A stretch of 64,000 nucleotides of DNA, taken from assembly GCA_035772405.1 (NCBI GenBank), contig JAYKKM010000181.1, positions 682,501 to 746,500 on the forward strand, written 5' to 3'. A program made the position numbers and the translations under genes. The stretch comes from Chrysogorgia sp. JL179-B06 (Eukaryota > Cnidaria > Anthozoa > Scleralcyonacea > Chrysogorgiidae). The notes below the pieces were generated by a model. It worked only from the letters and a program-made list of their open reading frames with translations, was not told the DNA's origin and searched no databases. Every line of letters starts with the position of its first letter. Within the stretch, counting starts at the first letter, position 1. Shown here one piece after another: positions 20,337 through 58,864 of the stretch.

Positions 20337-20420
20337 GAGAGGAAGGGATTGGAACTGAGCTCTAAGCCAATCAGAATCAAGAATGATTTGAATGGACCAA
20401 TCAGAGCACAGTTCCAATCC
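20299..20420. repeat. (TA)n tract and short hairpin outside the left TIR
   Basis: A (TA)17-like tract occupies 20299-20333. It is followed by a hairpin whose arms are GGATTGGAACTG (20349-20360) and CAGTTCCAATCC (20409-20420). A long AT tract also borders the right TIR (58865-59180), so element 2 probably inserted into AT-repeat DNA. The hairpin then either belongs to the element's end or is a later insertion. Confidence 0.7.
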
Positions 20421-21405
20421 GTATTTCCAGGGGGGTGTCGTATTTTTAAGGTGTGGTCACCCTGTATAGAACGACCAATCATCAAATCAGGGGGGATATG
20501 CACCTGGTCGTATACAAGAGGTTTTTTGTATTAAAATTATTCAAAAATAAGGTGGTCTCGGTCAAGAGTATATATATCACTTGGGTCGTGTTGTTGTACG
20601 ACCAGTTTTTTGATAATCCTGAGTTGAACGACCAGAGAGATTGAAGGTCATTCAAGGTGAATAGTGTTAAGCAAGTACTGACGTCATTTGCTATACGGGG
20701 TTGAAAGCAGTGGTGTACAAGGAACAGGAGGTTTAAGTCGTAGAATTTAGTGTTCTGATCAATTGATGATCAGTATGGAAAAGTTCACCGAGAAACCAAA
20801 CATGTCTAAGGTGAAACCCCAGAAACCAAACATGTACTTTTAAAAGACATGTTTGGTTTCTGGGTTTTTACTTTAGACATGTTTGGTTTCTCGGTGAACT
20901 TTTCCACACTGATTATCAATTAATCGGAACACGAAATTCTACGACTAAACATCCTGTTCCTTGTACATCATTGCTTTCAACCCCATATAGCATCCGTGCC
21001 AGCACTTAGACAAATCATCGTTCACACTGTGATATATATACCCACGGACACCTTCATTTGAAAAAAAATACAAAAATTCTATTATACATAACCATCATAC
21101 CTCACCCGATGTGATTTATACTTACGTGCACCATCCAAATGCCATATTTTTAAATGAAGACTTGTAATGTTTTTTGGGAATAAAAATAAACAGTTTTTGG
21201 AAAAACTGTTTTATTTTTATTTGAATGTTTTTAAACACACATTTTGAATTAGTCATAGAAATTTCCGTCGTGGAGCTCTTACCTCGACGCCATCTTATGG
21301 CCGAATGACTGATATTCCCTAGTTACTGTATTTTTATAAATGATATTTCCTCATAATATTCATATATGATATATCTCATAAAAATTATTTGGATGTTTTT
21401 CCTTC
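20419..21405 (+). repeat. left terminal inverted repeat of element 2
   Basis: The outermost 130 bases (20419-20540) are nearly identical to the reverse complement of 58740-58864, including GTATAGAACGACCAATCATC. Similarity continues through 20560-20660, resumes after the foldback at 20676-21010 with CATCATACCTCACCC (21088-21102), and includes GGCCGAATGACTGATATTC (21300-21318). It fades near 21400. The extra foldback explains why this TIR is longer than its partner. Confidence 0.92.
20676..21010. mobile_element. foldback element inserted in the left TIR only
   Basis: Two arms of about 150 bp are inverted copies: TACAAGGAACAGGA (20718) is mirrored near 20952, and GAAACCAAACATGTC occurs on both sides of the centre at 20835. 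The right TIR lacks this segment, so it was inserted after the TIRs existed. The left flank contains TTAAG and the right flank CTTAG, perhaps a mutated TTAA target. It encodes nothing. Confidence 0.8.
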
Positions 21406-21409
21406 TAAA

Positions 21410-21960
21410 AAGTTTGAGAGATAGTTGAAAAAAAACCTCAAAATAATTTTAGATGAATTATCCTATAAAAATATTAGACGTGTAAAAGTGTTTAAATAAA
21501 TTTGGAGGAAAAACCCAAATAAATTTTAAGAGATTTGTAGAGTATATAAGCAGATGTTATTTCATATTTTATCAGTTGTGTGTGTTTTGCTCGCTTGTAA
21601 GTTGTGCTTCGGCACAAGACTCTGACATCTTCCGATGTTCTGTTTTTTATTAAACTGCATCGGTGCGCGATCAACCCGTAGTCGAATTTGCGATTCGAAT
21701 GAGATTGACTCAGGTCCATAGCGACAGTACTGGTCATCCCTTGTTCAATGAATTGCTTATTTTACGCAAGAGTTTGTTCGTTAGCATATGATGAAAGGGT
21801 TAGCTATAGTAAAAACACACACACGATGGAGAAGTTGGATGAATATATATATTAGACACACGAAACAATAAAAAGTATTTACACAAATAAGTTGGTAATG
21901 TCTTTGAAGGGTTTTCTGTGGGGGTATAAAACCCCGCGATAGGTTATCCCTACAAATTAA
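21410..21960 (+). other. non-coding arm DNA with TATA box and possible polyadenylation site
   Basis: TATATAAG at 21544-21551 is followed about 100 bases later by ATTAAA (21651), with a GC-richer stretch up to about 21740. The arrangement of TATA box, short transcribed stretch and polyadenylation-like signal resembles a solo LTR or a short non-coding transcript. I see no LTR partner and no primer-binding site. No gene is supported in the interval. Confidence 0.35.
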
Positions 21961-21971
21961 AATATAAAATA

Positions 21972-22364
21972 TCAGGTTTTCATTTTTATCATAGTGTCTG
22001 TACTCTCAAAGTACATAAACTCCTCACCCCGATGATCCACATACCCCCACACGCGAGGATCGTCGTCGTCTTCTGGCTCATACTCGTCGAATGAGTACTC
22101 CGACTCCGGCTGGACTCGGAAGGCCCACTCGCTTTCCCCATCGGAGACGAGCAGCACACCGGGTACTGTTTCCTCTTCAAGGGTATCTTCTGTGGGGGGT
22201 GGAGGGATGGTTTCTTTCTAAGAGAGAAATATAAAAAACATAATAAATACATGTCGATTTTACAGACAGTAAAAACATTATTGCTATCTTACATTTTCTT
22301 CTTTCTTTTCTTGCGTGTCTTTATTATTTTCGGGTGCGTTTGGCTTGTTGTCTTTGTTGACCAT
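21972..22364 (-). CDS. spliced acidic arm protein (105 aa, two exons)
   Basis: Exon 1 (22364-22293, 24 codons from ATG) encodes a Lys/Asn-rich start. It ends at AAT followed by GTAAGAT. The 75-nt intron (22292-22218) ends in a pyrimidine stretch and TTAG. Exon 2 (22217-21972) continues in frame to a TGA. The protein is Pro- and Glu-rich early on, then has SEWAFRV, and a run YEPEDDDD before YVDHRGEEFMYFES. Splice borders, branch-length intron and in-frame junction all agree. An intron is notable in a Maverick-type gene. Function unknown; the end resembles the last part of the arm-family module only weakly. Confidence 0.7.
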
Positions 22365-22435
22365 TGTTTTTTTCTTCTCGTTCGTAGCTTCTTGCTTTGA
22401 AATCGTTTTGGTTTCAGATGTGCCTGCGTGTTTAT

Positions 22436-22830
22436 TTTATAATCATGGTCTACGGTCTATTACAATGGTTTGCGGCTTTAACCAATCAGAGTTTCTATAA
22501 TCAAACCCTCCCCCGTATCTATCCAATCAGAGATCGTTCATTAAAGCCTTCATGTCAAAACAATTGAATTATTATGGGTAGGAACAATACGTGTTGTTAA
22601 ACGCTTAGGAACGCGTATATATAATAAGCGTCGTGTTCTATGCCCTCCCTTTATGTCAAAACAGTTTGATTAATAATAGAGTAGGAACAATGAAGCTTAA
22701 GCACGCGACTATATAATAAGCGTTTTGTTCTGATTCCTCCCCCTATGTCAAAACAGTTTGATTAATAATATTGGGTAGGGATAATGAATTTACTTGTTGG
22801 GATTAGCGGCCATTTTGTTTGTGTACTTTG
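22436..22830 (+). promoter_or_regulatory. three ~100-bp promoter-like tandem repeats
   Basis: ATGTCAAAACA(A/G)TTTGATTAATAAT recurs at about 22551, 22652 and 22745. The first two copies are followed by GGAACAAT and by a TATA-like core: GCGTATATATAATAAGCG at about 22614 and GACTATATAATAAGCG at about 22708. Upstream, 22504-22552 has an inverted, diverged copy at about 27683-27735, in front of another arm gene. The interval has no ORF and looks like a divergent early-promoter region. This is inferred from motif content. Confidence 0.5.
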
Positions 22831-23147
22831 GTAGCTACGATTTTTTAATGAATTCTAACCTTAATTACTTGTAGGGATTAGCGGCCATTTTGAAGGGATT
22901 AGTCCCTGTGAAATATATATTTCCGTAGGGGTATGTGTTTAAATACGTCTATTTCTAGATATTTAAGCATTTTTACACTTATTTAAACATATTTTTATGC
23001 TTTTTGATACTTTATTTTACACTTTTCACACAATTTAGTATATATTTTTATATCCCCGTTAAACTATTTTGCGCGATAATATAAGTATTAGGGAGAGAGT
23101 TCATTAATTCATACATGTCAAAACAGACGATAAGTGGTTTTTAATGT
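22831..23147. other. AT-rich intergenic DNA
   Basis: GGATTAGCGGCCATTTTG occurs at 22801 and again at 22877. The rest is AT-rich with runs of T. It contains no ORF that I can support. Confidence 0.5.
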
Positions 23148-23498
23148 TTAACGTACAAATTCTGGATTGGAACAACACATTGTATACGCGTTTGCAAAGA
23201 AGATATGTCGGCCAACGAGATCTTTTTGATTTTCCTGTCGATGAATCACAGCAATAATAATTCCAGCTTCGACAACCATTCGGGTATTAAGAACAGAGGT
23301 AAGATTAAAATCTTTTAGTATTATCCCGCGACGTTCATCTAGCCAAATTTTATCCCGGTCATTTAGCCAATTTTTATTTTCGGACATAAAGTCAACCACA
23401 TAAAAATCAGAGTCTGGACATATGGTATATAAAAATTCAGAGCTGTATAACTTCACGTTATCAAGTTTAATTTCGCTTATATCTATACTTGTTGCCAT
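23148..23498 (-). CDS. arm-family module protein (116 aa)
   Basis: The product belongs by pattern to the repeated module found across both arms of element 2: an early hydrophobic segment (FLYTICPDSDFYVVDF), a middle beta-like stretch with NTRMVVEAGIIIAVIH, and the terminal signature DLVGRHIFF. The last motif matches DQLVGKHVVFI in the protein at 53417-54073. GTATATATAGAC at about 23532-23543, 35-45 bases upstream of the ATG, is a likely TATA box. The frame is intact. Function is unknown; a multigene arm family suggests host interaction, which is inference. Confidence 0.65.
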   Translation of the reverse strand: MATSIDISEIKLDNVKLYSSEFLYTICPDSDFYVVDFMSENKNWLNDRDKIWLDERRGIILKDFNLTSVLNTRMVVEAGIIIAVIHRQENQKDLVGRHIFFANAYTMCCSNPEFVR

Positions 23499-23534
23499 GA
23501 TGAGTTTTGTAATAAAAATGTGGGAGAGAGATGT

Positions 23535-23879
23535 CTATATATACAAAGGATTAATTTTTACAATGAATATATAATGATTGGTAAGATACACGCTTTTACC
23601 AATCTTATCGTGCTCGGGTGAATCGAATTCGATTTTAAAATAATTGTTATCTTCATCTTTAAAGAAAAGGTCATACATCTGTATCGGTTCGCCAGCAGGT
23701 TGGGGTCTTGAACCAATTAACTGTAGATTTCGTTCACGACATAAATCCCTCATAGATATTATATCTAAAAATTTTGCTTGATTCATGTCTGATGTCGGTT
23801 CGCCAGCGGGTTTGGGATCAATTAACTGTATATTTCGTTTACGAGTGCTCACCATAGATATAAATTTTGCTTGATTCAT
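23535..23879 (-). CDS. arm-family module protein with internal duplication (114 aa)
   Basis: The N-terminal half contains a duplicated block: MNQAKF...RNIQLI.PKPAGEP is followed by MNQAKF...RNLQLI..RPQPAGEP, about 31 and 36 residues. The C-terminal half has the module end, DLFFKDEDNNYFKIEF then HDKIGKSVYL. The gene overlaps the start of the upstream gene (ATG at 23879, stop of the neighbour at 23876) by four bases. The frame is intact. The duplication is probably recent because its two DNA copies (23700-23780 and 23800-23879) are still close. Function unknown. Confidence 0.6.
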   Translation of the reverse strand: MNQAKFISMVSTRKRNIQLIDPKPAGEPTSDMNQAKFLDIISMRDLCRERNLQLIGSRPQPAGEPIQMYDLFFKDEDNNYFKIEFDSPEHDKIGKSVYLTNHYIFIVKINPLYI

Positions 23880-24142
23880 GGCTGATAGGGTGGAGGTTCT
23901 TCGATTACTACGTGCACAAACTGGCCGATCAAATGTGTAAAATCGTCCTCCGATGAGTAGGTATATATATATTTTTCATCCCATAACAATAATATCTTAT
24001 ATATTATTATTTCTGGACATTCGTTGTTGGGTAACATATCCACTTTACGACATTCAACCACTTGATATTCAATGTGTGAAAAATACTTTGCTAAATCGGT
24101 CAGTATTACCAACAGAGGATTTTCTTTAGTACCTGCTATCAT
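23876..24142 (-). CDS. arm-family module protein (88 aa)
   Basis: Residues 12-80 form a near-complete module: LAKYFSHIEYQVVECRK, IIIYKILLLW, then DDFTHLIGQFVHVVIEE. The spacing matches the right-arm proteins at 54753 and 56723 (L-x-K-x-F/Y-x-x-x-x-Y-x-V-x-x-C). A GATATAAAG element lies about 40 bases upstream on the minus strand. The frame is intact. It ends in a short Pro-rich tail. Function unknown. Confidence 0.65.
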   Translation of the reverse strand: MIAGTKENPLLVILTDLAKYFSHIEYQVVECRKVDMLPNNECPEIIIYKILLLWDEKYIYTYSSEDDFTHLIGQFVHVVIEEPPPYQP

Positions 24143-24426
24143 TTTGAAAGTGTTTTAAAAAAAATATGACTTCTAACATGTGTCTTTATATCTTTCCCTG
24201 CAACGTTTTACCCGATAAATATTTTGGGGCAATGTGTACTGCATTAAGTCAACAAAAAGATTAAAAAGATTTACATGTATTAGTAATAGTCGCGTAATCG
24301 TCTTATAATATTGATTTTATCATTCAACCAATGAGAGTACCCCAATTTTTTATTAGGGAATTAAGTTCAACCAATCAGGTTACCTTATTTTTTTTAACGT
24401 GTTTTTTATAAGTGTTTGTTTCCTAA

Positions 24427-25752
24427 ATGTTTAGGCACACTTTCAGCATGGCCCATGTGAAGCAGACTCATAAAAATTTGGAAAGTGGAAAAACCATTGC
24501 ACGGGTTGCAAGTAGGGGAAAAGATATTCCTAAAATGTTAAAACAACATCGTCTAGAGCGACAAGAATATCGTAATAAGAATATTTCAGATGGTGAAACA
24601 TCATGCCGTCAAGAAATCAGAGGAAAAAAGAAAGTCAAACATTGTACAACTAAAGACAACATTGCACAGTCGCAATTAAATTTCGCTGTACCGATAGCTC
24701 AAGAACAGCCCAGTTACATTCTACACCCGCAAGCGAAGTATAACGCATCGCCACCGCAAGCAAAGATACCGTCTCTACCCCAGCAAGTAAATTCACCTCT
24801 ATTACCGCAAGCGAAGTATAACGTGTCGTCGTGGCAAGCAAAGATACCGTCTCTACCCCAGCAAGTAAATTCACCTCTACTACCGCAAGCGAAGTATAAC
24901 GCATCGCCACCGCAAGCAAAGATACCGCCTCTACCCCAGCAAGTAAATTCACCTCTACTACTGCAAGCGAAGTATAACGTGTCGTCGTGGCAAGCAAAGA
25001 TACCGTCTCTACCCCCGCAAGTAAACAACCTACCACCTCTACTATCGCAAGAACAGTATAATATACCCCTTCAAACACCGCAAGCAAAGTATAATACATC
25101 TTCTATTCCACCGCAAACGATCTCACCGCCACAGCCCGAAGATGAATTAGATAATTACATATACGATATGCCCATTGATTTCTTTGGTCAAATTCCTATT
25201 CCTTCTCCTGCGAATTTAATACGATTGTGTGATGAAATGGTCCCCGTTCAACAAGGAAAACAATTATTACAAATTGTGGATGAATTAGCAAATGCTCTTT
25301 CCCCAACATTATCTCCTATTCCTCTTTCACCACCACAACTACCACAGCCACCTAATTCACCCCAGCCATTATTTCCAGTGTGTGAAGAAGAGGAAGAAGA
25401 AGAAGATGAAGACGACCGAGAAGTATTGAACGATCCACCATTGAAGAAAAGATGTTATAAACGTTCGTTAATATATATGAAACGTGAAAAAAAAGGCGAT
25501 GAACATCATGAAGAAAAACGAATGACAATCTATTCGAATTATGATCAAGATATTATTTGTACACAACGCGATAAATATCGTGAGTTAGAGGGTCTCTATA
25601 TTGAGAAACTATATATAAATAAACAATATTTGCAATGGCGTTCTAGAAAATTTACGAGTGACCTTATGGAAAAACGATATATAATGGATAATAATAAGGA
25701 TTTGAAAAGAAAACATGATTTAAAAAAAAGAAAACCGAAATGTATAAAATGA
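24427..25752 (+). CDS. Pro/Gln-rich repeat protein (441 aa)
   Basis: A basic N-terminus (residues 1-80) precedes a repeat region at about residues 100-205. The repeat is four tandem 26-residue units built on PQAKYN..., QAKIPSLPQQVNSPLL; versions with ASPP and VSSW alternate, so the DNA has a 156-bp higher-order period. Residues 240-320 are Pro-rich with DELDNYIYDMPIDFFG, followed by an acidic run (EEEEEEEDEDDRE) and a basic, Lys/Arg-rich C-terminus. The start may be 24427 or the ATG at 24448. Neither enzyme motif nor membrane segment is visible. A scaffold or nucleic-acid-binding role is possible but unsupported. Confidence 0.65.
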   Translation: MFRHTFSMAHVKQTHKNLESGKTIARVASRGKDIPKMLKQHRLERQEYRNKNISDGETSCRQEIRGKKKVKHCTTKDNIAQSQLNFAVPIAQEQPSYILHPQAKYNASPPQAKIPSLPQQVNSPLLPQAKYNVSSWQAKIPSLPQQVNSPLLPQAKYNASPPQAKIPPLPQQVNSPLLLQAKYNVSSWQAKIPSLPPQVNNLPPLLSQEQYNIPLQTPQAKYNTSSIPPQTISPPQPEDELDNYIYDMPIDFFGQIPIPSPANLIRLCDEMVPVQQGKQLLQIVDELANALSPTLSPIPLSPPQLPQPPNSPQPLFPVCEEEEEEEDEDDREVLNDPPLKKRCYKRSLIYMKREKKGDEHHEEKRMTIYSNYDQDIICTQRDKYRELEGLYIEKLYINKQYLQWRSRKFTSDLMEKRYIMDNNKDLKRKHDLKKRKPKCIK

Positions 25753-25788
25753 TAGTGTTGTAAATAAAAATATCAGTAATGTGAAAAC

Positions 25789-26199
25789 ATGGAGGTGTGG
25801 AATGTCATGGTAAAAGAACTGGCACGTTTTGAAATAAAAATTAATAAAAATATGGAGAAAAGTGTGTGGAAATGTCTTGACGAACATGAGAATTTATTTA
25901 GAAATATTATTGGATATTTAAAAATTCCACGGGAACTTTTGGATGTATATATGCGGATGGATAGACATGAAATTGGACAAATAATAGCATTTTTTGCTTT
26001 AATCCTATGTTTTTTTAGATATAAAAACATTGATAATGAAGAATATTATATAAAATTATTTGTACGTCAAACAATTTTAGATTTTAGAAATTCTCATCTT
26101 AAATTCATTTTATTCCCCAATGACAAAAAACACACTGGCAAAAAAAACACTGGTTTTTTGTTGTTGAATATATTCTTTGAATTTTTAAAATTAGTCTAA
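25789..26199 (+). CDS. helical protein, possible Bcl-2-like (136 aa)
   Basis: The product is all-helical in pattern. A central segment, DRHEIGQIIAFFALILCFF (about residues 58-76), resembles the BH1 region of Bcl-2 proteins, in which a polar start leads into Gly and a hydrophobic helix. The stretch around residues 88-112 could correspond to the following helices, and a hydrophobic tail (LLLNIFFEFLKLV) ends the protein. Adintoviruses are known to carry Bcl-2-like genes, which would block host cell death. The Trp usual before the BH1 Gly is replaced by Ile, so the assignment is uncertain. The frame is intact. Confidence 0.4.
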   Translation: MEVWNVMVKELARFEIKINKNMEKSVWKCLDEHENLFRNIIGYLKIPRELLDVYMRMDRHEIGQIIAFFALILCFFRYKNIDNEEYYIKLFVRQTILDFRNSHLKFILFPNDKKHTGKKNTGFLLLNIFFEFLKLV

Positions 26200-27366
26200 A
26201 TACAATTTTTCAATACTCTGTATTATAATGTCAGGATCTTCATAGTTAATATTATATGCTTCTATAATACTCTTAATCATAAAAGTAGATGCTCTAGTCT
26301 TATCTGATGTAATCCTTACCCTTATAGAATAATTATATAATATATCCAAATGCGGAGGGTAAAATTGTAAATTAATGGGTCTATTATTTTGTATAATACT
26401 ATTATTAACTATATCAGAAAATAAACTGACTTTAAACTTATAATTTTTACTTGTCTTATTAAACAATTTAAACCAATAAGAGTAATTCTTACAATTTTTA
26501 AAACAACAACTAATTGGTGCGGGTTTCATTATCACTAGCTTAACAATCTTTTCGAGATTAAATTTATAAACCCTATCGTTACTTGCGTTAATTTTTGATA
26601 TAGGGTTATGATTTTCGCAAAAGAAAATAAAACAACTCGCAAGTTGATAAACTACTTTCTCAAAAACATCTAAAGTATGTAGATAATAAAAAGTAGACTT
26701 CAAATAAAACGGGTCTATAAAATATAAATAAATACAGCAATATGTAAATTCGCGACTAAAGCAACGATTAAGTCGATGTAATGTATTACAAAGATAACCC
26801 CCCCAACCCCCATATCCTATGGGTTTAGGAATTGTAGTTGGATTATCAGTAATAGTAATAGAAATAAAATGGTAAATATCATTTCTAGGGTAATAACTTG
26901 TTGGAATTTCAATAAAAAAATTATCGGAATGATTATCATTCAAATGAAAAATAGATTTAACTAATGTTTGAGACGGTATTAATAGTAATTTATGATAACG
27001 CTCACATAGCTTTTCACCATAAATAAAATATTTTCGTTGTGAATGAACAACGGGTATTATATAGTGTTGTTTATCTGTTAAGATTCGCCAATCCTTGCAT
27101 TCATCTTGGAGCATATCAGTTTTCATTTTTTCAATATAGGCGTAGTCTCCATACCCCCGACAATAAAGGTGTCTCGATTCAAGTTCCATACATTCGATAA
27201 TCCCTCCATAGTAATAGTCACATATGTCACAGACGGCAAATAATAATCCAATGTAACGGTTACGAAAATGTTGTATATAATAAACAATTTTCAATATCGT
27301 CTTAATATTGATTTCTTGAGCTTGCTCATAGGTTCTTTTACCGCCAATGTTTAACGACATTCTCAA
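26191..27366 (-). CDS. large arm protein, paralogue of the gene at 51.8-53.0 kb (391 aa)
   Basis: The intact product begins with a short polar leader and a helix KTILKIVYYIQHF. The right-arm pseudogene has ETILRVVLYFQYF at the same place. Both then have a CDICDYYYGG / CGLFDYYRGK segment, and later SCFIFFCENHNPI / SCFIFYCREHNPI and a Cys-rich segment ending in YWFKLF / YFFEFD. Conserved Cys and His pairs suggest metal binding or disulphides. It overlaps the 3' end of the convergent helical gene by nine bases. I do not recognise the family; function unknown. Confidence 0.6.
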   Translation of the reverse strand: MRMSLNIGGKRTYEQAQEINIKTILKIVYYIQHFRNRYIGLLFAVCDICDYYYGGIIECMELESRHLYCRGYGDYAYIEKMKTDMLQDECKDWRILTDKQHYIIPVVHSQRKYFIYGEKLCERYHKLLLIPSQTLVKSIFHLNDNHSDNFFIEIPTSYYPRNDIYHFISITITDNPTTIPKPIGYGGWGGYLCNTLHRLNRCFSREFTYCCIYLYFIDPFYLKSTFYYLHTLDVFEKVVYQLASCFIFFCENHNPISKINASNDRVYKFNLEKIVKLVIMKPAPISCCFKNCKNYSYWFKLFNKTSKNYKFKVSLFSDIVNNSIIQNNRPINLQFYPPHLDILYNYSIRVRITSDKTRASTFMIKSIIEAYNINYEDPDIIIQSIEKLYLD

Positions 27367-27827
27367 AAGCGATGACGTTTTTTAAAAAATCGCCTTGTAT
27401 ATATACTATTTTATCATTCTTAAAATATATATTTCCACACGCAGAATTTAACACGATAAAAATTTGAAAAAAAGTATTATTGTAATTACAATGTATAATA
27501 TATCAACTGATTTGACGTGTATGTGTTTTAGAACAACATTAGGGATTCGTTTTAATCCCACAACACAGCATTGGTGCAACTAATCCCCGGGTATTTGTTT
27601 AGAAGAAAATCGCTAATTATGGATTCGCGTCTCTAATTCCCAAAACACACATTCATTGTATACGAGTATCACAAATCATCGGGATGACATGAAAGCTTTA
27701 ATCAACGAACTCTGATTGGATCAAACCAATCTACCCCCAGTAACACATAGTAACGCGGGATGCAATTATAAAAGCCAATGTAGCGTCGAAAATAATTAAT
27801 ATCAGTCTGAGTGTAGGAGAGTGAGAG
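27367..27827 (+). promoter_or_regulatory. divergent intergenic region with TATA box
   Basis: The interval separates two divergent genes. TTATAAAAG at 27766-27774 is a likely TATA box about 55 bases before ATG 27828. Bases 27683-27735 (GACATGAAAGCTTTAATCAA and ACTCTGATTGGATCAAACC) are an inverted, diverged copy of 22490-22552, so two arm promoters share sequence. The rest is AT-rich without a gene. Confidence 0.5.
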
Positions 27828-29347: not shown

Positions 29348-29388
29348 ATAAAATGTTCTTAATTTTTTTTCTCTTATTGGCATTAAAA

Positions 29389-50270: not shown

Positions 50271-50272
50271 TT

Positions 50273-51139: not shown

Positions 51140-51339
51140 CTCTGAATCTGTTCCAAGGGTAAATGATGAATCACTGTAGGGATAGTGTTTATTTTATACC
51201 CTCCTCACAATTAAAAAAAATTTCCATCAAAAAAATTTTATTACACTAATAACATGTATAATTGATTACAACATTTGATATCGAATAAACTATAGTGTTT
51301 GCGTTGCATAACTCCTAAAATTTTACATAACTTTTTATG
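51140..51339. other. intergenic DNA
   Basis: The 200 bases before the Asn-repeat gene are AT-rich and carry no recognised ORF. They probably contain the promoter of the minus-strand gene starting at 51139. Confidence 0.4.
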
Positions 51340-51793
51340 TTATTTTTGTGTTTTTATTTTACATTCTATTTTATTTTCTAGAAATGCGACAAGTGCTTTC
51401 CCAATTTTTCCATTTCCATCGGAAAAAGGATGAATGGTTTCAAAAATAAAATAAATCAAAACTGATATATTTTTTTTTGATAGTTTTTTACGTAAAATTC
51501 ATCTAAATGTTCCATATATTGTTGAATATATAAAGGATCAACCCCCTCATGAAATCCAACAAATCTTTTTTTTTTACTGTAATGTCCAGCATTCGTTAAA
51601 TGGACCATAGATATTTCATGAATAGTTTTACAACATTCACTTATTTTTCATTTTTTTCCATATAAAATTTTCGAAGGGCAAAACAAAATCTCCCACATCT
51701 CATCCAAAATTATTTTTCATTTTCTTCGTCTTCTTCCATTCGTATAACATCATACGCAAACACTTTAAATTTTATACAGTCTTTTAATTCCAT
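51340..51793 (-). pseudogene. Fic-domain (AMPylase-type) gene, broken
   Basis: Reading on the minus strand from ATG 51793, short segments in changing frames follow in order: an acidic start, CCKTIHEISMVHL, AGHYSKKKRFVGFHEG, IQQYMEHLDEFYV, and finally ETIHPFSDGNGKIGKAL, ending at 51340. HPFSDGNGK is the Fic active-site loop (HPFx-D/E-GNGR); its last Arg is Lys here. Fic proteins transfer AMP or related groups from nucleotides onto target proteins. Frame changes near 51655 and 51480 and a stop near 51695 inactivate it. Too fragmented to appear as one long frame. Fic genes are unusual in viruses of this type. Confidence 0.78.
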
Positions 51794-51798
51794 TTTTT

Positions 51799-52982
51799 CT
51801 ACATACACGTTTGTTCACTAATACTTTTATAAAAAATATCCCAATTAACATTCGGTTCAGTCAGTTCGTCTTCATATATGGGATTTCTTGAAATTAAATT
51901 ATAATTCAATGTTGTTTGTATATATTTTCTTATCATAGTAAATAAATCTTTTACTTCATCTTCAACCATTATTACATGTGCAAATACTTTCTCATTATAC
52001 TTAAATTCTCCCGTATGTCCCCATAATTTTTTATTCATGTAACATCGACAGGATGTAATAGTAGGGGATGATTTTCATTTAAATCATAATTACGTTTGTT
52101 TAAAATACTTAATTTCAGGGGATCAAACTCAAAAAAATAACTTTGACGCGTACAATTTTTATACCGACATTTATCAAAGGATACTTTACCCATTTTTATA
52201 TAATATATAAAATTCCAAAAATCATATCTAATATTTTTTTCAGAAAGACCTTTTTTTTGTCTTTTGAGAAATCTTCCTATAGGGTTATGTTCACGACAAT
52301 AAAATATAAAACATGAAGTGACCATGATAATATTTTTAGTTGAACTACAATAAACATAAGAATTGAAAATACTTGGTGCTACCATTAACAAATAAATATT
52401 TAAAAAAAGATTTAAATCACCTTTCTCGCGCTGTATGTGCTTAAATTTGCTTACTAAACTTTCTTTTCCATAACCCAGGGTATAAGATATGTATTTTCTT
52501 TCAAACGTTAGATTTTGTAGAAAATATGTATAATGGTACTTATCTTTGGATCTTAAACATTGAAATAAATCTGAGTGGTTTTCAAGGGGTAATACAATAA
52601 ATAATTCTTTAAAACAATCGGGAATGAAAAAAAACTACAGCATAACGTGTCTGATGATTCAACTAGTAAAGTATGTTGAAAGAGTGTTCTCTTCAAGGAA
52701 TATTTTCTTTGACTTGCTTGTAAATTCGGGATCATATAAGAGAAACGATCTTCTAGGATAAAATAGGATTCCATTCCACGGGTTCCTTTGATTTTTTTTC
52801 ATGTTGACTATATAACTTACTTCGTCGTGGGGTCGAATGTTGTTTTTACATTTCATCATGGGACATGTGACATATTTTCCACGATAATAATCAAATAATC
52901 CACATAACCAAAATAAATATCCAATTTCTCCTTGGTTAAAATATTGAAAATAAAGAACAACTCTTAAAATTGTTTCAATCAT
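51799..52982 (-). pseudogene. broken paralogue of the 391-aa left-arm gene
   Basis: Starting at 52982, the first segment (ETILRVVLYFQYF, CGLFDYYRGK) matches the N-terminus of the gene at 26191-27366. Later segments in other frames follow in the same order: CFKELFIVLPLENHSD, TLGYGKESLVSKF, SCFIFYCREHNPIGRF, KCRYKNCTRQSYFFEFD, and the end (KVFAHVIMVEDEVKDLF). At least four frame changes (near 52660, 52555, 52400 and 52037) break it. So this pair was duplicated within the element, one copy in each arm, and only the left copy remains open. Confidence 0.65.
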
Positions 52983-53119
52983 ATTGCTGTGATTTTGAAA
53001 TATTTTTTACTCTTTATATAGCTTTTCAAATTCATTAAGCTAAATAAACATTAATCTAAATAAAATAAAAAACATTTTGTTTTCGGGTTCATTCTTCAGT
53101 TGAATCTCATGCAAGCAAT

Positions 53120-53375
53120 ATGTCAAAACCCAAACAGTATGATCTTCACTATCTTAAAGAAAATTGTCGAAATCAAAAATTTATTGTACGTAAATGTGAA
53201 CAAATCCTAAATCCATGCTTTCCTATGAATCGATTATATATAAAATTTGGAAGTTATGGAGTATGTAAAAAATAAAAAGCTTAATTATAAACAATATATA
53301 ACAACCCATGTGGCAGGAGATTGTGGTATACATAATTTCATAGATCAAGAAGTGTATATAAATTCTTTTTTTTAA
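53120..53375 (+). pseudogene. arm-family module gene, one frameshift
   Basis: ATG 53120 opens a 51-codon frame ending at 53275, with DLHYLKENCRNQKFIVRKCEQ and MNRLYIKFGSYG. In the next frame the module's end follows: ITTHVAGDCGIHNFIDQEVYI, to a stop at 53373-53375. The shift lies in an A-run near 53270. The pattern L-K-x-x-x-x-x-Q-K/Y-F-I-V-x-x-C matches the family. Too short to be listed as one long ORF, but part of the same multigene set. Confidence 0.55.
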
Positions 53376-53416
53376 ATAAAAAACGCTTTTCTCGATTTAT
53401 TTTGAACTGTTTTATT

Positions 53417-54073
53417 TCAAATATTTAATTCATTAAAATTATTACATAATTCCCCACAACAATCTAAATATACATGTTGTTGCAACATAGATTTATCAAA
53501 ATGTATTTTATTTATTAATGTTACAATATAATTTCCATTACTGCTACCATAAATCACATTAAGTACAGATAATATATTTTCATCTTTAATAAGAACTAAA
53601 TAAAGCTCTTGACCATCAAAATTTTCACGAAAATGATAATTTACTAATCTAAATCTTGAATCCTTACATGTACCATACAAAAACGTTTTTGAATAACATG
53701 CGATATTATTTATCTCAAAACAATCAAGGGTCGAAATTAACGTAGGTAATCTCGATTCTCTATCAATAAATACTACATGCTTTCCTACTAACTGATCATA
53801 AAATGACATAGTCCAGCTAAAACCGGTTATTAAAAATCTATAATATCTTTTCCCCCCATATCGTTTCCGAAATATAGATTGTTCATTTTTATCTTCCACA
53901 TAAATGTTAAAATATTTATAATCATAATCAGCACATCTAAACTGATAGGGATGTTCTCTCCATTCCAAAAGATAAAACGTTGAATCGCGTGTTTTTTCTA
54001 TCTCAAACAATTCAGCATGTAATAAATATTGAATGTCGGGGTAAAGAATTTCATCAAAATCACGCTCAGCCAT
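53417..54073 (-). CDS. two-module arm-family protein (218 aa)
   Basis: The intact product carries two copies of the arm module: residues 10-105, ending FYDQLVGKHVVFID, and residues 112-212, ending KSMLQQHVYLDC. Each begins with a hydrophobic/aromatic segment (TFYLLEWREHPYQF; RFRLVNYHFRENF) and has a middle beta-like stretch. The duplicated structure confirms that the about 95-residue unit behaves as a domain. Function unknown. Confidence 0.65.
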   Translation of the reverse strand: MAERDFDEILYPDIQYLLHAELFEIEKTRDSTFYLLEWREHPYQFRCADYDYKYFNIYVEDKNEQSIFRKRYGGKRYYRFLITGFSWTMSFYDQLVGKHVVFIDRESRLPTLISTLDCFEINNIACYSKTFLYGTCKDSRFRLVNYHFRENFDGQELYLVLIKDENILSVLNVIYGSSNGNYIVTLINKIHFDKSMLQQHVYLDCCGELCNNFNELNI

Positions 54074-54103
54074 TTAAATCTTTTTAAAAAAACGTCTTTT
54101 CTT

Positions 54104-54319
54104 CTATTCGTCGTAACCTATTTCCACTGAAACATTCACTGTATATTTCCACCGTATATTTAACTTGTTTAACACCCAACGTTTAAAACTGTTTAGTCTT
54201 GAAAGTTTTAATTCATCTGGATGAATCGGACACGGGTGTTTGTTAATACATCTTCCACATGGATGTTTGTTATAATATAATCTTTCAAATCGTTCATCTG
54301 CTGTTTCTTTACGTTCCAT
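54104..54319 (-). CDS. Cys-rich mini-protein (71 aa)
   Basis: The intact product contains FERLYYNKHPCGRCINKHPCPIH (four Cys and two His close together), a likely zinc-binding ribbon, and then a basic helix FKRWVLNKLN. The neighbour at 54408-54584 encodes a paralogue with FYSKYPCGQCLNGNMCGEVC and LKRWLLKKI. Both are on the minus strand, about 90 bases apart. Function unknown. Confidence 0.6.
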   Translation of the reverse strand: MERKETADERFERLYYNKHPCGRCINKHPCPIHPDELKLSRLNSFKRWVLNKLNIRWKYTVNVSVEIGYDE

Positions 54320-54407
54320 TGTCTAACAAATATAAAAACAATTATTTTTTTTTACTCTTATTTATACTGTTTTCTTTTTTTAATTTCTGTTTTCTTCTTT
54401 AAATCTT

Positions 54408-54584
54408 TTAACACCGTATCTTCTTTAACAACCATCTCTTTAATCTACAACAACGTTTTTGTTTTGGATCTTTCCACGGTATATAATTCGCACACACTTC
54501 CCCACACATATTTCCGTTAAGACATTGTCCACAGGGATATTTTGAATAGAATAATCTATTATATCGTGCATCCACGGTTTCCAT
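54408..54584 (-). CDS. Cys-rich mini-protein, paralogue of 54104-54319 (58 aa)
   Basis: ATG 54584 to TAA 54408 gives 58 codons. The product begins METVDARYNRLFYSKYPCGQ and has seven Cys, including a pair before a basic helix. It aligns along its length with the upstream... neighbouring gene's product (D-x-R-F/Y-x-R-L-x-Y; P-C-G-x-C; K-R-W-x-L-x-K). It is an intact frame below usual length cut-offs. The pair appears to be a tandem duplication. Confidence 0.6.
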   Translation of the reverse strand: METVDARYNRLFYSKYPCGQCLNGNMCGEVCANYIPWKDPKQKRCCRLKRWLLKKIRC

Positions 54585-54711
54585 GATATTTTTGTAAAAA
54601 CCATTTTTTTACATTTTTATTTATATCCTACTAAAATTTCTTTTTTATTTTAGAATATCTGTCTTTTTTAATTTTGATATTTTTCTTTTTATATTTTTTT
54701 TTATAAAAAAT

Positions 54712-54720
54712 TATATATAA
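54712..54720 (+). promoter_or_regulatory. TATA box for the gene at 54753
   Basis: TATATATAA lies 33 bases before ATG 54753 and is followed by the GC-richer ACGCGTTACCCCC. The spacing fits a polymerase II promoter. Confidence 0.55.
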
Positions 54721-54752
54721 ACGCGTTACCCCCATGTGGCACGTTATTGTGA

Positions 54753-55181
54753 ATGATGTCGAATTCACATGTACAGTATCGTGATTGTGATGAACATACC
54801 GGTAGAAGTTATCAAAGAATAATTGCTGATGACTTTAACCCCTACAAAATTGAAGATGAAAGTAACTATTATCCAAGTCGTTTTCTAGCAAAAGAATTAC
54901 ACCACTTTACCTATGTTGTAAAGAAATGTCAACCTACGGTATTATGCGAATGTATTGAAGATATACCCTATGAAGATATACCCTCAACGCCTCAAACATA
55001 TTATCTAGCTCTGGCAGTTAAAAAGAAACATGAATATGAAAATGATGAATGGAATTGTTCATGTCTGGGTGAAAACATAACAACAATTGTTGACTATGAT
55101 GCTTCTGATCTTTTACAAAAAGAAATTACACTAATAATAGATTCTAATAATTTCATGAAAGCTGTAGCATATACTCAATAA
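54753..55181 (+). CDS. arm-family module protein (142 aa)
   Basis: The intact product has a polar N-terminal third and one full module at about residues 45-135: FLAKELHHFTYVVKKCQPTVLC, YYLALAVKKK, LGENITTIVDYD and DLLQKEITLIID. This is the clearest family member and was used as reference for the pattern. A start one codon later (MSNSH) is equally possible. It is preceded by a TATA box. Function unknown. Confidence 0.7.
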   Translation: MMSNSHVQYRDCDEHTGRSYQRIIADDFNPYKIEDESNYYPSRFLAKELHHFTYVVKKCQPTVLCECIEDIPYEDIPSTPQTYYLALAVKKKHEYENDEWNCSCLGENITTIVDYDASDLLQKEITLIIDSNNFMKAVAYTQ

Positions 55182-55215
55182 AAACTTTTTTTAAACAAAT
55201 TCGTGTTTTTTATTT

Positions 55216-55229
55216 ATTATATATATAAG
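55216..55229 (+). promoter_or_regulatory. TATA box for the gene at 55264
   Basis: TATTATATATATAAGA lies 35-48 bases before ATG 55264 and fits a TATA-driven start. Confidence 0.5.
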
Positions 55230-55263
55230 ATTACACATTTGATTTAATCATAGTGATAACAAG

Positions 55264-55603
55264 ATGAATCAAGAACAAGATCTCGTGACCTGTGTCAATT
55301 ATAGGGGTTTAGCATATTATGACTATACTCCTCGTTATTATTCATGTCATTTTCTTCAAAAACATTTTCCTAACTATACATATTTGCTAGAGGATTGTAA
55401 ACCTGCTATACTATGTAAAGAATGTAATCCCCCATTTTGTTCTCCACCCCAAGTCTACGAACTAAAATTATTAAACAGGGATTACTTGAAGAGAAGGGAA
55501 TAACCCTAAAAACAATTCTTGAGACTAAAAGTGATCATCTCTTGTATAAAACAATTAAACTACTAAATGGTAACTCAATAATTCCACAACAAATTAATTT
55601 GTA
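55264..55603 (+). pseudogene. arm-family module gene, one frameshift
   Basis: From ATG 55264 the frame reads FLQKHFPNYTYLLEDCKPAIL and VYELKLLN, then stops at 55503. In the next frame, the end of the module follows (ITLKTILETKSDHLLYKTIKLL) to a stop at 55601-55603. The shift lies near 55475. Both parts align without a gap to the product of 54753-55181, so they were one gene. A TATA box precedes it. Confidence 0.65.
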
Positions 55604-55793
55604 AACATATTTATTTTTCTTGTAATAAAATTTACACAAAAATATTCTGTTTCTAACTTTCCAAAGTTTTTTATTTTAAAAACATTACAACGAATGAAAT
55701 ATTTGTTTCCCTCTACCCCTATGGTCAATGAAATTGTAGGGTTTAATATTTAATATAGGTGTTTGAGTTTTTGCTAATTTTACATTATCATTA

Positions 55794-56051
55794 TTAATAT
55801 TTATATATTTTCCCTTCAATGATGATGAGGTTCTGTAAATTTTGCTCCGATGCTCCAAACGCGTCTACTATCATCAATTTGAAATATCGAGGTCCTTGCC
55901 AATCTTTCAGATATAAATAATATCCATATCTTAACAACGAGGGAATCACAGGTTCATGATTTACTAATTGTATGGGTTGAGCACGATAATAAAATGTAAG
56001 ATAAGCATGAGATTCACATTCTCCAAAATCAATCATTGAACGCAACCACAT
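55794..56051 (-). CDS. arm protein, distant module relative (85 aa)
   Basis: The intact frame encodes AYLTFYYRAQPIQLVNHEPV, a GYYLYLKDWQGPRYFKLMI segment and LQNLIIIEGKIYKY. The last part resembles the module end (D/N-x-L-I-x-I/V). Upstream of the start the frame is closed. Its membership in the arm family is weaker than for others. Convergent with the gene at 55264-55603, with 190 non-coding bases between. Confidence 0.45.
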   Translation of the reverse strand: MWLRSMIDFGECESHAYLTFYYRAQPIQLVNHEPVIPSLLRYGYYLYLKDWQGPRYFKLMIVDAFGASEQNLQNLIIIEGKIYKY

Positions 56052-56172
56052 GTTTGAAAAATAATAGAAAAAATATATTTGATGCCCTGCTTTTATAGTT
56101 TTGCAAAAATCTATAAAAGTAGGTTGTCAAACTATAAAATTTTCACAAAACGTTCAAAAAAATATTGTCAAG

Positions 56173-56376
56173 ATGGTCTATTGCAGTTTCTGTTGTTGTG
56201 AAGTGAATTCCTTCTATCATTTTTTCATGCATTACAGATGTAAAGAATGCTTTGTAAACCATCATTATTGTTATCCTTGTAAACAGAATTACGGACGACT
56301 TATTTATAGTAAAATAGTTGATCTATGTGAATGTGATGATAGAATACAAAGATGGAAAAAAACTTATTTGGATTAA
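56173..56376 (+). CDS. Cys-rich zinc-finger-like protein (67 aa)
   Basis: ATG 56173 gives MVYCSFCCCEVN; the product has paired Cys (CSFC, CKEC, CYPC) and His residues in C-x2-C ... C-x2-C ... C-x2-C spacing and a further CECDD at the end. It probably binds zinc, perhaps RING-like, but the spacing is too short for a full RING. An upstream in-frame start at 56101 exists, yet 56173 is the first ATG with a Cys-rich continuation. Function unknown; RING-type proteins would suggest ubiquitin transfer, unproven here. Confidence 0.5.
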   Translation: MVYCSFCCCEVNSFYHFFMHYRCKECFVNHHYCYPCKQNYGRLIYSKIVDLCECDDRIQRWKKTYLD

Positions 56377-56400
56377 TAAAATTTTTTTTAAATACATCGT

Positions 56401-56550
56401 CTACCATTTCCAAAATTCATAAAACTTATGATTATAATTCGGATGATCTTTTTTCCATCCTCCTTTTTGAATTTTTTTAGAACGTCGTCGTTTTCGTATT
56501 CGTTTTTTTATTTTCGCTTTTCTTATACATCTCCTACTCCTACACTTCAT
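56401..56550 (-). CDS. basic QKGG peptide (49 aa)
   Basis: ATG 56550 to TAG 56401 encodes MKCRSRRCIRKAKIKKRI followed by Arg/Lys-rich sequence and SKKIQKGGWKKDHPNYN, ending in an aromatic stretch. The IQKGGW motif matches the other small core-like proteins of this element and a likely protease cleavage site. It lies in the right arm, away from the late block, so it may be a duplicated core gene. Confidence 0.5.
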   Translation of the reverse strand: MKCRSRRCIRKAKIKKRIRKRRRSKKIQKGGWKKDHPNYNHKFYEFWKW

Positions 56551-56662
56551 TTTTTTATGTTAACTGAAGTACGACAAGCAATGGTTTTTAAAAAAAAGAA
56601 AAAACCGTCTATTTATACTGTTCTGTTTTTGATTTTTTTTTTAATATCTTTTTCTGAGACAC

Positions 56663-56681
56663 ATATATAATATTATATAAG
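56663..56681 (+). promoter_or_regulatory. double TATA element for the gene at 56723
   Basis: Two TATATAA-type sequences (56663-56670 and 56674-56680) lie 43-60 bases before ATG 56723, consistent with a promoter for the module gene. Confidence 0.45.
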
Positions 56682-56722
56682 ATGTTTAAACTAAAAAACT
56701 TTATCATTACTGAAATAAAACA

Positions 56723-57078
56723 ATGTCCGTATTACGTTATGTTAGTATATGTAGGAAAAGTATAACTTTTTTTGACTGCTCCAAAGATACTGTTCAGTGC
56801 TATTTATCATGTGAATCTCTTCTTAAAGAATATCCTGAATATATATATTTTGTAGAGGATTGCAAACCTGTTACCATAATTGAAACAAAACAATGTTCTG
56901 TAATAAAAAAAATGGTGTGGAACAACACCCGTATGAAGTAACCCTGAAAGTTATCAATCATGGAGAATCTGGAAAAACACTAAAAATATTATCAGAGGAA
57001 GATATTCCTCATCTTTTACATAAAAATGTTAAGTTTATAAAAACTGACAAAGACATAATAATTCCTTCTCTTGTATAA
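56723..57078 (+). pseudogene. arm-family module gene, one frameshift
   Basis: The first frame (56723-56941) has SLLKEYPEYIYFVEDCKPV; the second (to 57078) has YEVTLKVINHGESGKTL and IPHLLHKNVKFIK. The frame changes near 56905, in an A-run. Both align with the 54753 product: K-x-Y/F-P-x-Y-x-Y-x-V-E-D-C-K-P is nearly the same in this gene and in the 55264 gene. Function unknown. Confidence 0.65.
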
Positions 57079-57124
57079 ATTTATTTAATAAAACATGTTA
57101 TTTTTTATACATGAATTTCTTTCT

Positions 57125-57568
57125 TTACTCTAAAAGTTTTTTTCTTTTTTGTTTTTGTCGATGGTTTTTTTTATAATCAGCTAATTTACGGATTCTTTCT
57201 CTATCCCATAATTTTCCCATTTTACCCTGACGTTTTCCATATCGATATAACGTGGACGGATCATATATTCCACCCTTAAAATGGTAGAAATCATCAGCAT
57301 AAGAACGAATGATTTCTCCCCCATATGGAAGCCAATCAAAAATACAATCTCTTGCTTCTTTGAGATAAACAACCCCTTGAAGATATCCAATTTCTTTATC
57401 TTTTACAATTTCACGACTACATTCAAAAAACGATATTTCATTTAATTTAAGATAATTCTGTGGAGTATGAATTAATTTCGCTACCTCTATCAATTTTTCA
57501 GCATTTTCTGGATTACGCACTTGAAATGACCAAATCTTTCGCGAGGGTATATACCCCATCTTCAACAA
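57125..57568 (-). CDS. HUH Rep-like domain protein (147 aa)
   Basis: The product resembles the N-terminal endonuclease domain of Rep proteins from circular single-stranded DNA viruses: KIWSFQVRNPENAEKL corresponds to motif 1, IGYLQGVVYL to motif 2, and DFYHFKGGIYD to motif 3, with its Tyr and Lys three apart. A GKRQGKMGKLW segment follows, as in that family. The metal-binding His of motif 2 is Tyr here, so endonuclease activity is doubtful. There is no helicase domain; the protein ends in a basic tail. The frame is intact. Such a domain in a Maverick arm would be a captured gene. The match is by eye and needs a profile search. Confidence 0.5.
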   Translation of the reverse strand: MLKMGYIPSRKIWSFQVRNPENAEKLIEVAKLIHTPQNYLKLNEISFFECSREIVKDKEIGYLQGVVYLKEARDCIFDWLPYGGEIIRSYADDFYHFKGGIYDPSTLYRYGKRQGKMGKLWDRERIRKLADYKKNHRQKQKRKKLLE

Positions 57569-57729
57569 AATAACTGAACATTTTTTTTATGATATCGTTT
57601 TTTATACCCTAGGTTTTTTACAAATGAAAAAACATTTTTCTCAAAAAACTTTCATATAAATAAGCTGAAACTTTTCTTTTTCATTTATACGTAAAACATT
57701 GTCCCTCTACAAACTTAGTTTAAGAAAAA

Positions 57730-58242
57730 ATGGCTACGAAAGAAGAAATAACGAATGAAGCTTCCTATGGAGAACCCATACCCCTGAATGGTTCCCCTCT
57801 CATATGGGATTACAACGATAAAGGAGAAGGATACGCGTACGGTGTACGTGTACGGGATACGGATACGTCGAAAGTGTTTAATTTCGAGGACTTTAAACCC
57901 GTCAAACCTATTCAGGATAATGGTGATTCTGATAGTGATGATAGTTTGAAAACATTTTTGGGGACTGACGAAGTAAAGGAAGAAAAAGTATTTAATAGAA
58001 ACAATATTAAAAAAAAAGTATATACCCGCTGTGATATTAATTCTCTTCGACAGAATTTTCCAAATCAAAAATATATTTTACGACACTGTATATATTTTCC
58101 ATCGGGTAAGCTATCCGGGTATAAATTATATTTAGAAGTGGTAGATGGGGGATTTCTTTGTCCGTATAAATATCTAACAACAATTATGATAACTGATGAT
58201 TCCATACTTAGTTCTATTAATAAAGAAATGTATTTAGATTAA
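57730..58242 (+). CDS. arm-family module protein with acidic leader (170 aa)
   Basis: The first 90 residues are polar and acidic (including GDSDSDDSLKTF). The C-terminal half is one module: INSLRQNFPNQKYILRHC, YKLYLEVVDGGF, YLTTIMITDDSILSSINKEMYLD. It is the last gene before the right TIR; the corresponding place before the left TIR is held by the spliced acidic gene. The frame is intact. Confidence 0.65.
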   Translation: MATKEEITNEASYGEPIPLNGSPLIWDYNDKGEGYAYGVRVRDTDTSKVFNFEDFKPVKPIQDNGDSDSDDSLKTFLGTDEVKEEKVFNRNNIKKKVYTRCDINSLRQNFPNQKYILRHCIYFPSGKLSGYKLYLEVVDGGFLCPYKYLTTIMITDDSILSSINKEMYLD

Positions 58243-58324
58243 ATAAAAACAATAAAAAGATTTGTTTTTTCAAAAAAAGTTATTTTATTGTGTGTTCAAG
58301 TACACTTTATTTTTTTAAAAAATA

Positions 58325-58860
58325 TATCTATTTGAAAAACACCAAATAATTTTTGGAACCCTCTACAAATTTTATCATTTTTTTTAAAAATACCGTAACT
58401 AAAGAATATCAGTCATTCGGCCATAAGATGGCGGCGAGGTAAGAGCTCCATGGGGGAAATTTCTATGATTAATTCTATAAACCAAAATTTGATTATTTTT
58501 ATTTCAACATCGTACAACTCTTCCAATAAAAATAATATGGACGTTTTTTTGGAGGGTAAGTATAAATCACATTGGGTGAGGTATGATGGTCGTTTATAAA
58601 GTTTTTTTTTGAATTTTAAAATATCTATCTCATGAAATTGACTACGATCACCTTGATTGACCTTCCTCTCTCTCTCTGGTCGTCAAACTCAAGGATAAAC
58701 CAAAAACTGGTCGTACAACAACACCAGATTTCATGAGATAAATATATACTAATTCACAAAAAACCTCTTGTATACGACCAGGTGCATATCCCCCTGATTT
58801 GATGATTGGTCGTTCTATACAGGGTGACCACACCTTAAAAATACGACACCCCCTGGAAAT

Positions 58861-58864
<4 letters not shown>
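58325..58864 (-). repeat. right terminal inverted repeat of element 2
   Basis: This is the reverse-complement partner of 20419-21405 without the foldback. Conserved blocks are GAATATCAGTCATTCGGCC (58406-58424), GGTGAGGTATGATGG (58576-58590) and the outer 125 bases ending GGAAATACGG at 58864. A (CT)n run at 58666-58678 is slightly longer than on the left. The TIR ends directly against an AT microsatellite. Confidence 0.92.

What the first reader, a model, noticed from the sequence alone, without database searches (positions are those of the whole stretch)
20419..58864. A 38.4-kb TIR-bounded Maverick with a full morphogenesis set and unusually large accessory arms
Both terminal repeats are visible, and the six hallmark genes lie between them. 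After subtracting four later insertions (about 7.9 kb), the virus is about 30.6 kb. Typical members of this group are 15-20 kb. About half of the interior is arm DNA with genes I cannot place in known families. It could represent an undescribed lineage of large adintovirus-like viruses.
Basis: partly seen in the sequence, partly recalled or inferred. Interest (0 to 1): 0.9.

Follow-up and report, generated by a model that had tools for sequence, protein, structure and literature searches.

The report
Large Maverick virus with enzyme-bearing arms
A decayed copy of a virus-like DNA element sits in a large genome, probably an animal's; related copies show a family of about 32 kb, larger than described vertebrate relatives, whose long ends carry conserved extra genes, two of which look like enzymes that modify proteins.

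Summary
Real and mostly right, with corrections. The window holds a decayed Maverick/Polinton (adintovirus-like) provirus with inverted ends, a PolB/ATPase module and a convergent integrase/penton/capsid/protease module. The host assembly (781 Mb) holds 39 further scored copies of its end (40 scored of 1169 candidates). The palindrome in the left repeat is old; three TTAA-flanked insertions (7.55 kb) are not part of the element. Net length is about 31.3 kb; one opposed pair of ends elsewhere spans 31,869 bp, against 12.7-24.6 kb for intact vertebrate Mavericks. The arms belong to the element: collinear in 3 of 3 left-arm and 1 of 1 right-arm pieces fetched, pooled dN/dS 0.40 and 0.56. Most likely an undescribed large variant of a known kind whose arm genes act on the host (inferred). 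Host, number of complete copies and place in the tree are open.

The parts
20301..59181 (.). whole element incl. three later insertions and the (AT)n runs inside its ends; net about 31.3 kb
   Evidence: edges set by the (AT)n runs, as AGTAGTA is not seen in this copy
20301..21450 (+). left terminal repeat, with the old palindrome 20689-20992
   Evidence: matched in 7 of 7 other ends
58276..59181 (-). right terminal repeat; lacks about 400 bp and an 83-bp outer stretch that the left repeat has; ends in (AT)n 58865-59181
21972..22217 (-). left arm: small acidic ORF, conserved in 3 of 3 other left arms (69-72%)
23148..24154 (-). left arm: three small ORFs; 23151-23534 is family I, paralogue of 53420-54073
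   Evidence: phmmer 4.1e-7; conserved in 3 of 3 copies
24427..25752 (+). left arm: Pro/Gln-rich 441-aa ORF with 78-bp tandem repeat
   Evidence: dN/dS 0.41-0.43
25789..26199 (+). left arm: 136-aa ORF
   Evidence: 81-83% in 3 of 3 copies; dN/dS 0.29-0.32
26191..27360 (-). left arm: family II, 389 aa, no relative found at E<=1
   Evidence: dN/dS 0.35
27828..29045 (+). left arm gene split by insertion 28045-28621; one 257-aa ORF spans both sides in 2 of 3 copies
28045..28621 (.). later insertion: TTAA at both edges, 22-bp perfect inverted ends
   Evidence: absent in 3 of 3 copies
29353..30682 (+). left arm: two ORFs (228 and 196 aa), no family
   Evidence: dN/dS 0.51-0.54
30706..31020 (-). small basic protein with RGG/KGG steps (core-protein-like, recalled)
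30993..31460 (-). SET-domain protein
   Evidence: PF00856 3.8e-6, 27.7 bits, cut-off 22.4; open and 94.8% in 2 of 2 copies; dN/dS 0.24, 0.26; PDB best only 0.034
32168..33320 (+). PolB N-terminal part: TP-like and vOTU-like ORFs (named by recall; no Pfam hit)
   Evidence: 98-99% in 2 of 2 copies
33321..38688 (.). later insertion inside PolB: TTAA edges, 20-bp inverted ends with 1 mismatch; weak Mutator-like ORF
38643..41400 (+). PolB exonuclease and palm pieces, several frames
   Evidence: palm PF03175 3e-18; phage pPolB hit 3e-4
41393..43692 (+). ATPase (Walker motifs recalled), split by the next feature
   Evidence: no Pfam hit
41505..43122 (.). later insertion: TTAA edges, inverted ends over about 240 bp (75-78%)
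43808..44005 (+). small basic protein with KGG steps
   Evidence: no Pfam hit
44049..44733 (-). adenain-like protease in two ORFs
   Evidence: 30.6% to 61373-61657, 2.7e-9; no Pfam hit
46044..47375 (-). major capsid protein, 443 aa, open
48544..49379 (-). penton-like pieces in several frames
   Evidence: 42% over 38 aa to 63309-63854, 1.2e-7
49355..50192 (-). integrase in two ORFs; one ORF in another copy
   Evidence: rve 0.0035; 3.4e-9 in copy
50273..51193 (-). right arm: 306-aa stretch with acidic runs
   Evidence: 88.5% in copy; dN/dS 0.41
51340..51647 (-). Fic-domain gene, broken here, open in another copy
   Evidence: PF02661 8.2e-6; 1.2e-10 in copy; PDB 1.6e-5
51799..53006 (-). right arm: family II paralogue in pieces; one 451-aa ORF in another copy
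53417..54073 (-). right arm: family I, 218 aa, no relative found at E<=1
   Evidence: 96.3% in copy; dN/dS 0.19
54104..54608 (-). right arm: tandem pair of small Cys-rich ORFs
   Evidence: 1.5e-9; 100% and 95% in copy
54753..57078 (+). right arm: family of three related ORFs (54753, 55243, 56714) and neighbours
   Evidence: 1.6e-7 to 3.6e-6; 91-99% in copy
57125..58242 (.). right arm: 57125-57586 (-) and 57724-58242 (+)
   Evidence: 84% and 89% in copy; dN/dS 0.89 and 0.85, so constraint not shown

Best explanation
It is a decayed provirus of a Maverick/Polinton of about 32 kb, one of a family with many end copies in one genome (probably an animal's; host not identified). Shown: inverted ends, a PolB palm of the protein-primed type, an integrase core, a capsid protein with double jelly-roll-type matches, two convergent core modules, and arms that are collinear in other copies and, pooled, under purifying selection. 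Inferred: the virus copied its linear DNA by protein priming at the inverted ends, packaged it in an adenovirus-like capsid and entered chromosomes by its integrase. Also inferred: the arm genes act on the host - the Fic protein by transferring AMP or a like group to host proteins, the SET protein by methylating lysines, and the duplicated families as fast-changing host-contact proteins. The focal copy is dead, opened by three TTAA-target insertions and frame breaks, and lies among remains of other Mavericks.
For: Ends. Gene order as in vertebrate Mavericks. Families; capsid: 17, 95, 96, 107. Size: 31,869 bp between opposed ends on C492. Arms: collinear in 3 of 3 left and 1 of 1 right pieces; dN/dS 0.40 (0.33-0.49) for 7 left ORFs and 0.56 (0.42-0.78) for 8 right ORFs. 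SET. Fic.
Against: No target duplication or AGTAGTA in the focal copy; the one copy with both ends shows a 5-bp shared flank, not the 6 bp reported for vertebrates. ATPase, TP and vOTU rest on recalled motifs without a Pfam hit. Right-arm dN/dS is less clear: an out-of-frame control gives 0.75, and single ORFs range from 0 to 1.12. Codon use of the arms also resembles other DNA of the window in part (Maverick C 0.72-0.79, LINE 0.81-0.87 for inner left and right arm). The capsid model has low confidence. Fic is broken here, and any host target is a guess.
Confidence: 0.75

Rival explanations
1. An ordinary 15-20 kb Maverick that looks large because other mobile DNA or a second element is nested in it.
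For: Three insertions are present, and other Maverick remains flank the element.
Against: After the insertions about 31.3 kb remain; another copy has opposed ends 31,869 bp apart; arms are collinear in other copies.
Confidence: 0.04
2. The terminal repeat is an unrelated high-copy dispersed repeat and not the virus end.
For: 1169 first-look candidates, far more than one expects of a 32-kb element.
Against: In 7 of 7 other ends read the match runs on into arm sequence, by 0.4 to 0.8 kb beyond the repeat; (AGT)2 is a known Maverick tip. The high count may include end-only derivatives, not examined.
Confidence: 0.05
3. The focal copy is a recombinant of two subfamilies (compatible with the best explanation).
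For: dS to other copies is about 0.40 in the outermost left ORF tested, 0.13-0.20 near the core and 0.03-0.14 in the right arm; the three other left arms are 95.6-99.4% alike.
Against: The fall is not even (0.19-0.26 at 24.4-27.4 kb); the right arm was compared with one copy only.
Confidence: 0.4
4. Fic and SET serve the virus itself or act against rival viruses, rather than on the host.
For: SET lies beside PolB; no substrate is known from any call.
Against: Fic lies in an arm, away from the core modules. This is position only.
Confidence: 0.3

Closest known systems
Vertebrate Mavericks (PMC8097293; passages and one section read)
   Same: Module content and order, convergent strands, accessory regions on both sides, terminal repeats of similar length, (AGT)2 tip.
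   Different: Intact vertebrate elements 12.7-24.6 kb, mean 16.9; here about 32 kb. 6-bp target duplication there; 5-bp shared flank in the one copy checked here.
Adintoviruses, family Eupolintoviridae, formerly Adintoviridae (PMC11071296 one section; PMC12451622 passages)
   Same: Animal-associated type: PolB, rve integrase, hexon-type capsid, adenain-like protease.
Polinton-like viruses of protists (abstracts in listings)
   Same: Size range quoted as 14-40 kb; double jelly-roll capsid.
   Different: Here rve integrase and pPolB with vertebrate-Maverick gene order.
Adenoviruses (recalled)
   Different: Integrase present; arm families without Pfam match in the 15 or so scanned.

Membership tests
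Maverick/Polinton | protein-primed family B polymerase | tested here: met
   PF03175 3e-18; hit to an annotated protein-primed PolB, 34%, 3e-4
Maverick/Polinton | TP and vOTU domains before PolB | tested here: inconclusive
   recognised by eye; no Pfam hit
Maverick/Polinton | rve integrase | tested here: met
   below cut-off here, above it in another copy
Maverick/Polinton | double jelly-roll capsid protein | tested here: met
   from a model of pLDDT 51
Maverick/Polinton | penton, adenain-like protease, packaging ATPase | tested here: inconclusive
   penton and protease only by similarity to another Maverick of the window; ATPase by recalled motif
Maverick/Polinton | terminal inverted repeats with (AGT)2 tip | tested here: met
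   7 of 7 other ends; not in the focal copy
Maverick/Polinton | 6-bp target duplication | tested here: inconclusive
   none in the focal copy; 5-bp shared flank in one copy
Maverick/Polinton | size of intact vertebrate members, 12.7-24.6 kb (not a defining rule) | tested here: not met
   31.3 kb net; 31,869 bp in another copy
Adintovirus (Eupolintoviridae) | hexon recognisable by BLASTP with alpha/beta references | not tested
   no reference sequences at hand; fold match to a Drosophila-associated adintovirus capsid at 11% identity
Adintovirus (Eupolintoviridae) | integrase with C-terminal chromodomain | tested here: inconclusive
   seen by eye; no Pfam chromodomain hit for 49358-49774
Fic/DOC proteins | Fic domain with HPFx[D/E]GNG motif | tested here: met
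   PF02661 above cut-off in the focal piece and in another copy; motif
Fic/DOC proteins | AMP transfer | not testable with these tools
   needs an assay
SET-domain proteins | SET domain above Pfam cut-off | tested here: met
   27.7 bits, cut-off 22.4; solved structures match only weakly, best 0.034
SET-domain proteins | methyltransferase activity | not testable with these tools
   needs an assay

The most novel reading that the evidence does not exclude
A distinct lineage of roughly 32-kb animal Mavericks whose arms outweigh the core and form a host-manipulation kit: a Fic enzyme, a SET enzyme and several duplicated protein families without known relatives, kept under selection across copies. 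Animal Mavericks could then reach adenovirus-size genomes and carry protein-modifying enzymes.
Probability: 0.5. Interest if true: 0.7.

Novelty: new variant of a known kind. Interest (0 to 1): 0.6.

Why it matters
Vertebrate Mavericks vary only about 10% around 17 kb, which its authors read as a constrained genome size (passage of PMC8097293). A family nearly twice that, with conserved arm genes, would show that the limit differs between lineages, and its many copies in one genome let dating, recombination and selection be measured. Fic and SET genes would be concrete leads to how such viruses deal with their hosts. In the held library no paper has both 'Fic domain' and 'Polinton'.

Tried and rejected
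Scans of viral contigs with the capsid, its alignment and the PolB palm found no relative; two queries from other Mavericks of the window also found none, so that collection is not informative here. Genome contigs with the capsid alignment: none. PHROGs: only a polymerase match among 10 proteins. Rfam: none. PDB by sequence: nothing convincing for the capsid, protease piece or integrase piece. The 389-aa arm protein folded alone gave an unusable model (pLDDT 32) and was not searched. I first took 20661-21060 for an insertion and the (AT)n runs for the target site (notes); overturned both. I first took 51799-52074 for the start of the Fic gene (note); one search shows that it matches the family II gene of another copy. 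Profiles of the arm families found one more overlapping piece of family II and no other secure member. A repeated 11-mer in the left arm was not pursued.
Full report
What is there. The window is contig C181, 682501-746500, of an unnamed 781-Mb assembly in 522 contigs. Between about 20301 and 59181 lies one element. Its inverted ends match at 98.2% over the outer 113 columns and at 84-91% per block further in, reaching about 21450 and 58276. No target duplication was found.

Insertions. Three stretches have inverted ends and TTAA at both edges: 28045-28621, 33321-38688 and 41505-43122, 7.55 kb together. The first is absent from 3 of 3 other left arms; the other two were not checked elsewhere. 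The stretch 20661-21060, an apparent insertion in the left repeat, is matched in 7 of 7 other ends, so it is old and the focal right repeat has lost it.

Other copies and true ends. The left 242 bases scored 40 places (the focal one among them; the other 39 at 93-98%) out of 1169 first-look candidates, a lower bound. Of these I read 7 other ends, from the top of the list. All 7 carry AGTAGTA at the edge; the focal left end does not, nor does the right by eye. AGT twice is the commonest vertebrate tip. On contig C492 two opposed ends lie 31,869 bp apart, with flanks TAGTTA and AGTTAA, a 5-bp shared word. C492 was chosen because it showed a pair; it is not a random sample. I did not read its middle.

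The arms belong to the element. One right-arm piece (C492) is collinear with window 49495-58617 at 92.6%. Three left-arm pieces (C492, C428, C290) are collinear with 20311 to 30.7-30.9 kb at 78-95% per main block (70-74% in one short tandem-repeat block), apart from the insertion and some small length differences. ORFs exceed chance. Codon use of inner left and right arm follows the core at 0.92-0.96; the outer left arm at 0.81-0.85. Controls: Maverick A 0.32-0.36, but Maverick C 0.72-0.79 and a LINE 0.81-0.87, so this test separates only in part. Pooled dN/dS is 0.40 (bootstrap 0.33-0.49) for 7 left-arm ORFs and 0.56 (0.42-0.78) for 8 right-arm ORFs. Out of frame the same alignments give 1.10 and 1.36 on the left, 0.75 and 1.33 on the right; the 0.75 lies within the right arm's bootstrap range. 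Singly, left-arm ORFs of the focal copy give 0.22-0.55 and right-arm ORFs 0 to 1.12, so constraint is not shown for each gene.

What the arms encode. Family I pairs 23151-23534 with 53420-54073 (4.1e-7) and family II pairs 26194-27381 with pieces at 52035-53006 (7.7e-10, 2.3e-6), so both arms share genes; family II against the open 451-aa ORF of copy L010 gives 28% and 1.8e-21. These E-values are for small ORF sets. A third family (54753, 55243, 56714) and a tandem pair (54107, 54411) lie in the right arm. A SET domain lies beside PolB at 30993-31460 (27.7 bits, cut-off 22.4), open and 94.8% identical in 2 of 2 copies, dN/dS 0.24 and 0.26. A Fic domain lies at 51340-51647, broken here (27.0 bits, cut-off 24), open in copy L010 (42.5 bits, 1.2e-10) with the motif HPFSDGNGR. 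Solved Fic proteins match the focal piece at 1.6e-5.

How it works. Most likely it is an integrating DNA virus that replicates by protein priming, with arms that act on the host. Replication, packaging and integration are inferred from the gene families. The role of Fic, SET and the duplicated families is inferred from domain names, their place and their conservation. None of it is shown by experiment.

Novelty. The kind is known. What appears new is the size (about 32 kb against 12.7-24.6 kb for the intact vertebrate elements, 134 in number; and 13.3-14.6 kb for three Drosophila-associated adintoviruses), the arm families and the Fic gene. No paper in the held library has both 'Fic domain' and 'Polinton'. 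In two wider searches the 15 papers listed of 62 and of 45 show no 'Fic domain'. In a search for 'Polinton', 'SET domain' and 'Maverick', 3 of the 15 listed papers (of 147) hold all three; I saw only titles and abstract starts. Polinton-like viruses of protists are quoted at 14-40 kb (abstract start), so size alone has parallels. The founding adintovirus paper was not held, so its content was not checked.

Mosaic history. dS between the focal copy and others is about 0.40 in ORF 23151, 0.29-0.30 in 23879, 0.19-0.26 at 24.4-27.4 kb, 0.13-0.20 at 29.4-30.7 kb and 0.03-0.14 in the right arm, while the three other left arms are 95.6-99.4% alike in their main blocks. Recombination between subfamilies is a fair reading; the right arm was compared with one copy only.

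Limits. The capsid and arm-protein searches of the host genome did not complete. The number of complete copies, the host and the tree position are open.

Noticed in passing
6791-18965: Remains of at least one other Maverick, of higher GC: PolB pieces (PF03175 1.4e-7; Endonuclease VII 6.5e-6) and an integrase core on +; a TP-like ORF on - at 10497-11392 (by recall) suggests a second one.
   Followed up: partly
12776-13528 (-): ORF with Bro-N (5.7e-22) and a VRR-NUC match just below its cut-off.
   Followed up: no
61094-63854 (-): Part of a third Maverick cut by the window end: penton-like, capsid-like and adenain-like ORFs related to those of the focal element.
   Followed up: partly
28045-28621, 33321-38688, 41505-43122: Three insertions with TTAA at both edges in one provirus; the first and third share the start TTAAAGTGC. 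Superfamily (piggyBac or Kolobok by recall) not settled.
   Followed up: partly
22552-23125: The 11-mer ATGTCAAAACA occurs 4 times exactly within 0.6 kb of the left arm; with one mismatch 10 in the window against 4.25 expected, 0 of 100 shuffles reaching 10. Perhaps a regulatory repeat.
   Followed up: no
1381-3937 and 60264-60899 (-): LINE-type reverse transcriptase remains on both sides; RVT_1 1.3e-31 for 1384-3006, the two are related.
   Followed up: no
L009-L012 against the window: Divergence of the focal copy is uneven along the element, and the other three left arms are nearly alike, as if a recent burst and recombination between subfamilies had occurred.
   Followed up: partly
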